Below, in pieces: positions 38,671 through 41,399 of a stretch of 41,399 bases of DNA (the stretch's first letter is position 1; each line of letters starts with the position of its first letter). The notes below the pieces were generated by a model. The model saw nothing but the letters and a program-made list of their open reading frames with translations, had not been told where the DNA came from and ran no database searches. Origin of the DNA: Methylomonas methanica. Its GTDB lineage: Bacteria > Pseudomonadota > Gammaproteobacteria > Methylococcales > Methylomonadaceae. Position numbers and translations under genes: made by a program. The stretch covers positions 1 to 41,399 of the forward strand of contig LUUF01000096.1 of NCBI GenBank assembly GCA_001644045.1, in the 5' to 3' direction.

Positions 38671-38883
38671 ATGTCACGCTGGCGACCGCCCCGCCCTAAA
38701 TCTTCGCCGTACATCACCGCCGAAGGCTATCGCACCCTGGAAACCGAACTGAAACAGCTTTGGGAACGGCGCAAGGACGTGACCATCGCACTGTCTGCCG
38801 CCGCCGCGGAGGGCGACCGCTCGGAGAATGCCGAATTGCGGAAACAACCCCTCACAATGTACTATATAGTTATAACAAGATGA
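38671..38883 (+). pseudogene. greB: greB fragment, truncated after codon 55
   Basis: The first 55 codons encode a normal GreB start ([19 protein letters not shown] ... [13 protein letters not shown]), the coiled-coil domain of the transcript cleavage factor that rescues backtracked RNA polymerase. GDRSENAE is where the family continues with a Tyr-rich YIYRKKQLREID-like segment. Here, at 38836, the sequence changes to [15 protein letters not shown] and stops, and the DNA becomes AT-rich. The catalytic acidic tip (GDRSENA D/E) is at the very end of the fragment and the C-terminal domain is absent, so this cannot be functional. The break coincides with the edge of the integron-like region. Confidence 0.88.
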
Positions 38884-38946
38884 TACATAAGATATAATAA
38901 TATAGTACACGTACTAAGTAATCATACTATTAATACATATAGTACA
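38858..38946. repeat. AT-rich block with three TGTACTATAT copies
   Basis: TGTACTATAT at 38858-38867, and its complement ATATAGTACA ending at 38909 and at 38946. The first and last copies are inverted to one another across 89 bp. The block begins 22 bp after the greB break. It could be a protein-binding region or a remnant end of a mobile element. No ORF is convincing. Confidence 0.5.
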
Positions 38947-39336: not shown

Positions 39337-39495
39337 TCAAACTAGCCATACATGCTTGATTGAAAGACCTGCCCCCGATTTCCCAATGAAAGCCAAAGCG
39401 ATTTTGGATAGCAGGTAACTGACCCAGCCGCTTACTCCCAGCCCGTGAATTGTTTCCAGTACTGATGTAAACAAAAGTTTTCTCTTATTTTGCAT
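39337..39495 (-). CDS. Small cassette-encoded membrane-like protein
   Basis: A 52-residue product from ATG 39495, chosen because GGAGGG lies eight bases upstream. The frame stays open further upstream through a hydrophobic stretch (AVLLLALLALMIVKYFVV) to TTG 39588 and beyond, so a longer two-helix protein is possible. The short form has one likely membrane helix (VSGWVSYLLSKIALAFIG). It is the cassette gene nearest to the distal end and lies left of the attC at 39670-39734. No family recognised. Confidence 0.4.
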   Translation of the reverse strand: MQNKRKLLFTSVLETIHGLGVSGWVSYLLSKIALAFIGKSGAGLSIKHVWLV

Positions 39496-39669
39496 GGTCT
39501 TACCCTCCTTCACAGGTTTAACCGCTGTGCTCGGCATTGCTAACGAAACTACAAAGTACTTCACTATCATCAACGCAAGTAGGGCCAAGAGTAAAACTGC
39601 TGTCGTAGGAGTTGCACCTACGCCACTTCCCGCTAGCCAAAATCGCCTATATGTCTCCTTACTATTTAT

Positions 39670-39734
39670 GCCTAACGAGATAGGTCAGGGACGCTCCGCA
39701 AGCGGCAGCGCCGCTTGCACCCACAATGTTAGGC
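39670..39734 (-). other. attC site 1 (59-base element)
   Basis: On the minus strand the site runs from GCCTAAC (39734-39728) to GTTAGGC (39676-39670), matching RYYYAAC...GTTRRRY, 65 bp. Inside is the strong hairpin CAAGCGGC-AGC-GCCGCTTG. The stop TAA of the upstream ORF (39729-39731) lies in the first core site, a common feature of integron cassettes. Confidence 0.88.
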
Positions 39735-39989
39735 GCATACATCAGAGCTATTGATTGCAATGGGGCTTGTCGCACCTGCACGAATCTTTGTTTCAGCAAT
39801 GGCCTCAAAGGCCGCCTGATTTGCAATAAATTGTTGCTCTGCTGAGTCTTGGGCATTGCTTGGGTCTATATCTTGTAGAGCTTCTGTTGAAACCATACAA
39901 ACGAATCTGCTTCCATCTACATTTGCTTCAAAGTTGATGCCAAAGGTCGTTGGGTTTATTACGTAATTGCCGGTAAATGTAATGTTCAT
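39729..39989 (-). CDS. Small cassette protein, DUF1488-like
   Basis: 86 residues: MNITFTGNYVINPTTFGINFEANVDGSR, then a region with VSTEALQDI. The beginning and the VDG...C.VS.EAL pattern resemble the DUF1488 family of short proteins of unknown function. AAGGAT lies four bases before ATG 39989. The stop codon is inside the attC core. It starts 48 bp after the end of the TIR-domain gene, with no complete attC between, so the two may share a cassette. Confidence 0.65.
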   Translation of the reverse strand: MNITFTGNYVINPTTFGINFEANVDGSRFVCMVSTEALQDIDPSNAQDSAEQQFIANQAAFEAIAETKIRAGATSPIAINSSDVCA

Positions 39990-40019
39990 AGTTATCCTTT
40001 GTCCGAGTGAATTTGCATT

Positions 40020-40043
40020 GTTAGAAACGCCACTAAGTTAGAT
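40020..40043 (-). other. attC remnant between TIR gene and next ORF
   Basis: The TIR gene's TAA lies in ATCTAAC (40043-40037), a valid RYYYAAC core. A second TTCTAAC (40026-40020) follows. No GTTRRRY partner or hairpin is present before the next gene's Shine-Dalgarno, so this looks like a collapsed or partial attC. Confidence 0.45.
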
Positions 40044-40715
40044 AGCTACCAACTCGGCAATTTTGGCCGCGACCACTGCCATTGAATCTTCTGAAGTGTC
40101 CAAGCCGGTTCTGGAGGCGAGCAAGGGGCTGACATTGCGTAGAGCTTCATATGTAGTGTTGTGCACGATGGGAACGAGCTGGTTACCAGCCAGCAATGCC
40201 GAAAGCTCTTTGTCAGCGACACTCTCTTTTGGTAGGCGTTCCAGCATCGCGGGGGTCACCAACACAAGTCCTATTCGAGAATTCGCTAAGCCCTTGTCGA
40301 TAGCGCGCATCATTGGTACGCCGAGTCCAAGGTCCTTCTCGCTGAACCAAATTTTGACACCGGCTGCCTCAAGCAAGTCGTGCAATTCTTTGGCTGGTCC
40401 TTTGCGGTCGTCCCACGCGTGACATAGGAAAGCGTCACGAAGATCAGGTTGCACCACTGCTCGAGTCTCAACAGCTTCTCGGATTGGTGTGAGTGATTGA
40501 ATTTGAGCAGACGTGTAAGACATAGACGAACCTGATCTAGACCAGCGAGGCCTTGCGCTGCTGGTGGGTCTAGCACTACCGCTGCTACTACCGTCATACG
40601 AAGAGTAGGACGAGCCGTAACCACTATAACGACTACTTTTGAAACGGCATGCTGGGCAGGCTGCTGCTGCGGCCGCTGAACTATGTCCGCGTACTGGTGC
40701 AGTGCATCTTGCCAT
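40038..40715 (-). CDS. TIR-domain protein with Cys/His N-terminus and Ser/Tyr/Gly-rich linker
   Basis: 225 residues, ATG 40715 with GAGG eight bases upstream. Residues 1-24 carry Cys4, His11, Cys20 and Cys23 (CPAC), a possible small zinc-binding knuckle. Residues 27-70 are a low-complexity Ser/Tyr/Gly/Arg linker (SGYGSSYSSYDGSSSGSARP). Residues 92-225 are a TIR domain: DAFLCHAWDDRKGPAKELHDLL (box 1), GVKIWFSEKDLGLGVPMMRAID (box 2) and VADKELSALL with Glu170 in the position of the NADase glutamate. TIR domains of bacterial defence degrade NAD+ or make cyclic ADP-ribose-type signals, so phage defence is a reasonable guess. It lies in an integron cassette. Confidence 0.88.
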   Translation of the reverse strand: MARCTAPVRGHSSAAAAAACPACRFKSSRYSGYGSSYSSYDGSSSGSARPTSSARPRWSRSGSSMSYTSAQIQSLTPIREAVETRAVVQPDLRDAFLCHAWDDRKGPAKELHDLLEAAGVKIWFSEKDLGLGVPMMRAIDKGLANSRIGLVLVTPAMLERLPKESVADKELSALLAGNQLVPIVHNTTYEALRNVSPLLASRTGLDTSEDSMAVVAAKIAELVAI

Positions 40716-40744
40716 GTCATTTTCCTCTTTGTTTGATTGAGTAG

Positions 40745-40810
40745 TTCTAATGTGAAGTTGAGGGGCGCGCCACCGCTAGGCGGTGCAGCCCCTCGAACGT
40801 AGTGTTAGGC
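40745..40810 (-). other. attC site 2 (59-base element)
   Basis: Minus strand: GCCTAAC (40810-40804) to ATTAGAA (40751-40745), 66 bp. The second core has A where G is expected at the crossover base. The interior folds into two clear stems, GAGGGGC/GCCCCTC and CACCGC-TAG-GCGGTG. The stop of the right-hand ORF (40805-40807) is within the first core. Confidence 0.85.
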
Positions 40811-41399
40811 ATTGGCAAGCACATATTCAGCAGCAGCAACCCTGGATTTAGTTAGTTCGATCAACTTGAGATATAACGCGATCTCAAGGGCGAAGTACTG
40901 AAGTTGCATTTTTTGCCATAGCTGCATGTATTGTATATGCATAAACTGAAATTGCTTCAGTTGGTTTTCTGCTGAGTCTCGTTGTGCGTTTGCAACTTCT
41001 ATCTTTTGTGACCGTGGGACGTCAAGCGCAAGGAATGCCTCTGAATCGTAATGCCAAGGGTTCTTTTGGACATCTATCTGCCAGAAATAAAGATAGCCAG
41101 ACTCTTGAAATATTCTTGAAATCTCTTGGTCATGTTGAGGGTTTTCCAATAGATATGCGGATACTTGCTCAAACGTTTGAATATCGACTCCACTTAAAGC
41201 CCGTATTTCTCTAAGAATGGAGTTTGTGATCGCCGTTTGTTTATCAAGAGGACTATCCGACTTGGCGAACTCGATTTCCTCAACAGATGCACTTCGGATG
41301 CAGCCTTCAATCTGCACCATTAATGGCGACTCGGCAATATCCTGTGGGTAGCAATAGTCAGGGTTTTTGACAATAGGAATCTGATCCCCACCACCAAAA
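40805..41399 (-). CDS. Cassette-encoded hypothetical protein, 5' end beyond window
   Basis: The frame is open from the stop at 40805 through the Met at 41320 and on to the window edge (upstream codons read GGGDQIPIVKNPDYCYPQDI), so the true start is probably outside. The visible part has about 197 residues. From about residue 110 of the Met-started part it is helical and rich in Gln, Met and Leu (ENQLKQFQFMHIQYMQLWQK), then LEIALYLKLIELTKSRVAAAE. No signal peptide can be judged and I do not recognise a family. Its stop codon is in the core of attC site 2. Confidence 0.7.
   Translation of the reverse strand, partial: FGGGDQIPIVKNPDYCYPQDIAESPLMVQIEGCIRSASVEEIEFAKSDSPLDKQTAITNSILREIRALSGVDIQTFEQVSAYLLENPQHDQEISRIFQESGYLYFWQIDVQKNPWHYDSEAFLALDVPRSQKIEVANAQRDSAENQLKQFQFMHIQYMQLWQKMQLQYFALEIALYLKLIELTKSRVAAAEYVLANA

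What the first reader, a model, noticed from the sequence alone, without database searches (positions are those of the whole stretch)
40038..40715. Cassette-borne TIR protein with a zinc-knuckle-like head and prion-like linker
A compact C-x6-H-x8-CPAC head, a 44-residue Ser/Tyr/Gly/Arg linker similar in composition to phase-separating proteins, and a TIR domain with the catalytic glutamate in place. The head could be a sensor of nucleic acid or phage protein and the linker could drive clustering that activates the NADase. It is a small single-gene defence candidate carried on an integron.
Basis: partly seen in the sequence, partly recalled or inferred. Interest (0 to 1): 0.75.

Follow-up and report, generated by a model that had tools for sequence, protein, structure and literature searches.

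The report
Mobile zinc-headed TIR protein
A small bacterial gene, spread by several kinds of mobile DNA, encodes a likely NAD-cutting immune enzyme joined to a tiny, probably metal-binding head by a floppy linker; it may work alone as a suicide alarm against viruses, but its activity remains to be tested.

Summary
The ORF is real: minus strand 40038-40715, 225 aa, with a head C4-x6-H11-x8-C20-P-A-C23, a Ser/Gly/Tyr/Arg linker and a TIR domain with Glu170. Over two searches the head is intact in 234 of 241 listed proteins and Glu170 in all 241. Cys-to-His swaps at C23 and fusion of the same head and linker to a second TIR class argue for a portable, probably zinc-binding module. The model's TIR is closest to TcpB, PdTIR, BtTir and AbTir; the linker is disordered. 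PADLOC's ThsB model matches end to end, yet ThsA is missing: nothing recurs beside 79 loci except recombinases (at most 10), and the ThsA SLOG domain occurs in 3 of 80 carrier genomes, always on another contig. The gene travels in true integrons, with an ISNCY transposase, on plasmids, in an island and in viral-collection contigs. In this window the integron evidence is partial: one canonical attC, one degenerate site, no integron integrase over cut-off. Best reading: a single-gene, NAD-depleting anti-phage defence whose head senses and whose linker clusters. Sensing, zinc, clustering, NADase activity and protection are inferred, not shown.

The parts
40038..40715 (-). orphan TIR gene, 225 aa
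   Evidence: ORF; PADLOC PDLC00424 'ThsB' 410 bits over 1-225; Pfam TIR_2 E 7.6e-14
40644..40715 (-). residues 1-24: head M-A-R-C-T-A-P-x2-G-H-x8-C-P-x-C, putative CHCC metal site
   Evidence: C4, H11, C20, C23 in 74 of 74 aligned rows, but three of the 12 loci left out of that alignment lack a complete head; C23 replaced by His in 5 of the 121 proteins of the second set
40545..40643 (-). residues 25-57: low-complexity S/G/Y/R linker
   Evidence: model pLDDT under 50 at residues 28-51; S+G+Y+R 79% (sd 8) in 313 linkers
40443..40544 (-). residues 58-91: conserved W-S...S-Y-T motif and helix 69-88 that lead into the TIR
   Evidence: W58 in 74 of 74 rows; model pLDDT 74-90 in these blocks
40041..40442 (-). 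residues 92-225: TIR domain
40206..40208 (-). codon of Glu170, inferred catalytic residue
   Evidence: pairs with the Glu of W-T-N-Y-E in DUF1883-type TIRs; present in 241 of 241 listed homologues, 237 by pattern and 4 by eye
40723..40728 (-). AGAGGA, ribosome-binding-site-like
   Evidence: read from the sequence
39670..39734 (.). canonical attC, 65 bp, after the neighbouring DUF1488 gene; the stop of that gene lies in its first GCCTAAC
40744..40811 (.). degenerate attC-like site between the 171-aa ORF and the TIR gene (GCCTAAC at one end, imperfect other end)
   Evidence: read by eye; DNA fold z -2.96 and -2.72, outer ends unpaired
39729..39989 (-). neighbouring gene, DUF1488, 86 aa
   Evidence: Pfam PF07369 E 4.5e-9
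40805..41320 (-). neighbouring cassette-like ORF, 171 aa, no match in three libraries

Best explanation
This is a stand-alone, mobile, single-gene anti-phage system. The protein is inert in healthy cells. The N-terminal CHCC head (probably zinc-bound) recognises a phage-made or phage-altered molecule; the S/Y/G/R linker tethers the head and brings copies together; the clustered TIR domains form the composite active site typical of TIR enzymes (recalled) and break down NAD+ through Glu170, stopping or killing the infected cell so that the phage cannot spread. Shown here by sequence: architecture, conservation of head, linker composition and glutamate, TIR fold of the model, lack of a recurrent partner gene, repeated carriage on mobile elements. 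Inferred: zinc, sensing, clustering, NADase activity, defence.
Against: No activity data of any kind. The Trp of WxxxE, present in the DUF1883-type relatives, is V166 (Val 67, Ile 7 of 74 rows), so the chemistry may differ. Defence context is mixed: no single PADLOC family matches more than 3 of 150 adjacent genes; 107 families match at least one, but how many genes that makes is not shown. Three of 79 loci lack a complete head (L038, L048, L067). The S/Y/G/R bias could serve solubility, not clustering. STALD occurs in 3 of 80 carrier genomes against 2 of 299 in the background draw, so a minority trans partnership is not excluded.
Confidence: 0.55

Rival explanations
1. It is a Thoeris-type ThsB: the TIR makes a cyclic ADP-ribose signal read by a separate effector encoded elsewhere.
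For: PADLOC ThsB model PDLC00424 matches full length at 410 bits; fold nearest to AbTir and similar TIRs (that some of these make cADPR forms is recalled); STALD in 3 of 80 carriers against 2 of 299 background genomes, one of which (G263) also carries this family.
Against: 77 of 80 carrier genomes and the window's genome lack STALD; all three STALD hits lie on contigs of another length than the TIR's contig; in the one STALD locus read (L091) a SIR2-STALD gene stands next to its own ThsB_TIR gene; no effector among recurrent neighbours. Other effector types were not tested; PF20016 never rang, controls included, so it tells nothing.
Confidence: 0.2
2. It is a host-directed TIR effector that blocks animal or plant immune signalling, spread among bacteria on mobile DNA.
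For: A survey of plant-microbiome integrons reads cassette-borne TIR proteins as host immune regulators (PMC11089894, passages); a TIR protein on an ICE of Yersinia ruckeri is reported to bind MyD88 (PMC6769684, passages; its sequence was not compared).
Against: Carriers include a cyanobacterium and bacteria such as Mariprofundus and Nitrosospira (their free-living habits recalled); no signal-peptide-like start by eye (no predictor run); none of the Pfam families shown in the neighbour tally is a secretion family (25 of 93 shown).
Confidence: 0.1
3. The TIR is a catalytically weak or inactive scaffold and the head-linker part does the work, for example binding nucleic acid or a cell structure.
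For: Trp of WxxxE replaced by Val or Ile; the head is nearly as conserved as the TIR part (77% against 82% mean pairwise identity) and occurs on two TIR classes; one viral-collection protein carries the head without any TIR.
Against: Glu170 kept in 241 of 241 homologues; E126, P134 and H185 invariant in 74 of 74 rows.
Confidence: 0.1

Closest known systems
Thoeris ThsB (PADLOC PDLC00424)
   Same: TIR domain; the model covers this protein full length
   Different: no ThsA among recurrent neighbours and no STALD in 77 of 80 carrier genomes or in the window's genome; metal-site-like head and S/Y/G/R linker
Bacterial TIR proteins TcpB/BtpA, PdTIR, BtTir, AbTir (NADase activity of some recalled; AbTir so named in PDB)
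   Different: different N-terminal part; Val/Ile in place of the Trp of WxxxE (Trp seen for PdTIR and TcpB/BtpA, for the others recalled)
DUF1883-TIR proteins (Pfam PF08980 + PF13676)
   Same: single TIR proteins found on plasmids; three listed members carry this head and linker instead of DUF1883
   Different: another TIR subclass, about 33% identical over the TIR, with WxxxE
SARM1 and MyD88-type TIR assemblies
   Same: TIR activation by clustering is the model borrowed here (recalled)
   Different: clustering there by folded domains, here proposed for a disordered linker; untested
Integron-borne anti-phage cassettes (Darracq, Getz, Kieffer 2025; seen only as references in PMC12444791)
   Same: single-gene defence moved as a cassette
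   Different: whether this family was among those tested was not seen

Membership tests
Bacterial TIR-domain NADase | TIR fold | tested here: met
Bacterial TIR-domain NADase | catalytic glutamate in helix alpha-C | tested here: met
   E170 pairs with the WxxxE Glu; 241 of 241 homologues; lies in helix 168-176 of the model
Bacterial TIR-domain NADase | Trp of WxxxE | tested here: not met
   V166; Val 67 and Ile 7 of 74 rows; not required in all TIR NADases as far as I recall
Bacterial TIR-domain NADase | NAD+ cleavage | not testable with these tools
   needs enzyme assay
Thoeris system | TIR protein matched by a ThsB model | tested here: met
   PDLC00424 E 7.9e-124
Thoeris system | adjacent ThsA (SIR2-SLOG) | tested here: not met
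   no recurrent neighbour of that kind in 79 loci; STALD absent in own genome and in 77 of 80 carriers; the three hits lie on other contigs (contig lengths 133909, 121231, 632259 against 149729, 79920, 224274)
Thoeris system | other effector types (TM-macro, protease) | tested here: inconclusive
   PF20016 found nowhere, controls included; protease type not tested
Integron gene cassette | flanking attC sites | tested here: inconclusive
   one canonical attC one gene away and one degenerate site; none right after this gene
Integron gene cassette | integron integrase in the genome | tested here: not met
   best 82.6 bits against cut-off 265; draft of 115 contigs and the array runs to the contig end
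CCHC zinc knuckle | C-x2-C-x4-H-x4-C spacing (recalled) | tested here: not met
   spacing is C-x6-H-x8-C-x2-C; best Pfam match for the head is Zn_ribbon_19 at 13.3 bits, cut-off 30.8; no PDB match under E 0.27
FUS-like phase-separating linker | S/G/Y/R-rich low complexity, disordered | tested here: met
FUS-like phase-separating linker | condensation | not testable with these tools
   needs microscopy

The most novel reading that the evidence does not exclude
The head plus S/Y/G/R linker is a portable bacterial alarm front end: a zinc mini-domain that detects a conserved phage trait and a condensate-forming linker that switches on whichever TIR enzyme it is fused to. Phages may have captured the head (the L145 protein) as a decoy. 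It would be a one-protein counterpart of Toll adaptor signalling, carried widely by integrons, insertion sequences and plasmids.
Probability: 0.25. Interest if true: 0.85.

Novelty: new variant of a known kind. Interest (0 to 1): 0.55.

Why it matters
It would show that TIR enzymes can be switched on through a low-complexity linker, and it offers a very small testable model: one 675-base coding stretch with four putative metal ligands and one putative catalytic residue.

Tried and rejected
First AlphaFold job on 16 close homologues was poor (pLDDT 49) and is not used. PF20016 as a test for the second ThsA type was uninformative. The strict attC scan beside 79 loci found only 2, one of them AT-rich and probably chance, so it gives no support for the integron claim by itself; the support comes from integrases and from reading three loci by eye. 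No clear terminal inverted repeats were found for the ISNCY-TIR block, so its ends are not defined. No sigma-70-like promoter or terminator in 39950-40900. The head HMM in 299 genomes of the window's own phylum gave 8 strong hits (window included): six are this head-TIR protein, two sit in short frames (L092, 61 aa; L099, 31 aa); the rest (E 7e-4 or weaker) look like chance. In 296 genomes of the phylum of Chitinophaga 3 strong hits, all head-TIR, one of them the centre genome chosen because it carries the gene. A looser head pattern in viral contigs returned the same 20 contigs. The non-TIR head protein of L145 had no relative in viral contigs beyond itself, no PHROG match and no Pfam match over cut-off. 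No PDB sequence match for the head better than E 0.27. Literature: the ten searches were made, in an open-licence library only; no listing or passage that I saw described this head or linker. Most papers listed were not opened. My notebook entry calls both Legionella copies broken; one search shows that only L016 has a stop in the matched stretch and L065 has none, L065 was merely left out of A4.

Rows dropped: alignment A4 uses 68 of 80 loci (left out: L004, L008, L016, L023, L026, L038, L048, L055, L065, L067, L071, L072); of these L038 and L048 lack the front of the head and L067 has Phe for Cys4. The neighbour analysis covers 79 of 80 loci (the gene was not called in L023 by my script, though its frame is open). 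The neighbour family scan used 150 of 155 adjacent genes (dropped: the pairs of L008 and L071 and one of L055). The 313 linkers count six sequences twice (window and five P entries also in A4).

Full report
What is there. The finding's coordinates hold a 225-aa ORF on the minus strand. It reads as four parts: a 24-residue head with C4-x6-H11-x8-C20-P-A-C23; a low-complexity linker (residues 24-62: 15 Ser, 6 Arg, 5 Gly, 4 Tyr of 39); a conserved W58-S...S-Y-T motif plus helix; and a TIR domain (Pfam TIR_2, E 7.6e-14). That it is a gammaproteobacterium is inferred: G263, marked 'same class', has its STALD hit at the same coordinates as G669, the genome of the Frateuria locus L075 (class of Frateuria recalled).

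It is a family and not an accident. A protein search scored only the 8000 candidates that share most words, and all 8000 passed E 0.001; the 120 listed are 74-100% identical over 99-100% of the query. The other hits were not seen and may include other TIRs. A second search from an actinobacterial member (48.6% identical over residues 3-223) again filled its cap and listed proteins named after Rhodococcus, Mycolicibacterium, Pedobacter, Arenibacter and others; 115 of the 121 of that set, query included, have the head pattern. One genome scan gave 448 loci, of which the best 80 were kept: proteobacteria, a cyanobacterium, Bacteroidota, Myxococcota, Desulfobacterota (phyla of the named organisms recalled). 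In a draw of 299 genomes of the window's phylum 8 (window included) have the head at E below 1e-8; in 296 of the phylum of Chitinophaga, 3, one of them the chosen centre. In E. coli 109 of 5426 complete genomes hold a DNA relative of the Klebsiella plasmid version.

The head. The pattern C-x6-H-x8-CPxC is intact in 119 of 120 and 115 of 121 listed proteins and the four residues in 74 of 74 rows of A4. Exceptions: five of the 121 have His for the last Cys, which keeps a metal ligand; one has a shorter spacing (P0090); one lacks the whole front (P0175). Among the 79 loci where the gene was called, L038 and L048 lack the front of the head and L067 has Phe for Cys4. The head and linker also occur on a different class of TIR, the one otherwise fused to DUF1883: P0326, P0346 and P0352. 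A head pattern scan of the viral collection found 20 contigs: 19 encode this TIR protein and one (L145, 69.5-kb contig) encodes a 164-aa protein with the same head, no TIR, and a second pair of CxxC motifs near its end. So the front end looks like a module in its own right. Zinc is an inference from the ligand set; the model gives no metal and its confidence there is moderate (pLDDT 57-73 by blocks). The spacing is not that of a classical CCHC knuckle (spacing recalled), and no solved protein is recognisably related by sequence.

The linker. Over 313 of 315 sequences it is 79% S+G+Y+R (sd 8), 261 have no acidic residue, and [SGP]Y[SGP] occurs 2.6 times against 1.85 in shuffled linkers. Its mean pairwise identity is 48% against 77% in the head and 82% in the TIR part, though gaps make the first figure rough (74 rows). 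Composition kept while sequence drifts suggests selection on composition, as in FUS-like domains (recalled); that it condenses is untested.

Partner or not. PADLOC's ThsB model PDLC00424 matches end to end. PADLOC's paper describes type I Thoeris as ThsA plus ThsB and says that searching for orphan genes of such systems was unproductive (PMC8565338, passages). Here no neighbour is shared by more than 10 of 79 loci, and the two largest groups, 10 and 9 loci, are recombinases (by eye, with NCBIfam naming 5 of 6 tested). Pfam and PADLOC tallies of 150 of 155 adjacent genes show no common partner: the commonest Pfam family is integrase in 6, the commonest PADLOC family is in 3, with 107 PADLOC families matching at least one gene. 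STALD, the SLOG part of ThsA, is present in 1 of 50 and 2 of 30 carrier genomes, against 2 of 299 in the background draw, one of which (G263) also carries this family. The window's genome has none. All three carrier hits lie on contigs of another length than the TIR's contig. In Paraburkholderia the STALD gene is a SIR2-STALD protein beside its own ThsB_TIR gene. I therefore do not file it as Thoeris, while a slight excess of STALD in carriers is noted against that.

Vehicles. (a) Integrons: integrases over the TIGR02249 cut-off lie near the gene in L028, L030, L038 and L045 (six neighbour proteins tested), and attC-like sites follow the TIR stop in L028, L030 and L045 (by eye); my strict automatic scan caught only 2 of 79 loci. 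Cassette-borne TIR proteins are already in print: a survey of plant-microbiome integrons says its largest known-function category, host immune regulation, is predominantly TIR proteins and TAL effectors (PMC11089894, passages); whether they belong to this family was not seen. (b) A block of about 2.5 kb, ISNCY transposase plus TIR, is 91.7% identical between a Klebsiella plasmid and an E. coli chromosome, where it lies beside a truncated hipA and its transposase is annotated as frameshifted; 119 plasmid records hold at least 80% of the block. (c) Plasmids: 347 records match, 143 over at least 80% of the query; the weaker ones are partly other TIRs such as DUF1883 proteins. (d) An E. coli island with YagK/YfjJ and inovirus-like genes. 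In this window the array is weaker: one canonical attC, one degenerate site, no integrase over cut-off, array at the contig end.

How it most likely works. A lone TIR enzyme with its own sensor: head binds a trigger, linker brings copies together, TIRs assemble and consume NAD+. The first two steps are inference from conservation and modularity; the last from fold and glutamate. The lost Trp leaves open which NAD+ product is made.

Verdict.

Noticed in passing
window 38671-38883: A fragment of greB (model positions 2-49, E 4.5e-10) ends abruptly before an AT-rich inverted repeat (38858-38909). Elsewhere in the genome lie a full greB (C48:338967) and a partial match to positions 47-155 with one TGA (C48:333865), so a second greB copy looks split, perhaps by the insertion that brought the cassette array.
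   Followed up: partly
L145 5711-6202: A 164-aa protein in a 69.5-kb viral contig has the same CTAPxxGH...CPxC head without a TIR, and CxxC pairs near its C-terminus: possible decoy or the head's original setting.
   Followed up: partly
P0326, P0346, P0352: Same head and linker on the TIR class that usually carries DUF1883: domain swapping between two orphan TIR families.
   Followed up: partly
L118 6352-8835; L157 7349-9818: ISNCY transposase and TIR gene move as one block; in E. coli A10 it lies beside a truncated hipA. Of 993 plasmid records that match the block, 874 hold under 80% of it; in several listed rows that is the transposase without the TIR.
   Followed up: partly
window 40805-41320: 171-aa cassette-like ORF with no match in Pfam, NCBIfam or PADLOC.
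   Followed up: no
plasmid hits H79-H96: DUF1883-TIR proteins are common among the weaker plasmid matches of Enterobacterales and look like a second large orphan TIR family.
   Followed up: no
window 39337-39646: 83-aa ORF (39337-39588) with an 18-nt inverted repeat pair (39398-39415 and 39629-39646) beyond the canonical attC; possibly another cassette.
   Followed up: no
L016 10001-10690: The copy in Legionella rubrilucens has one stop in the matched stretch; described only.
   Followed up: no
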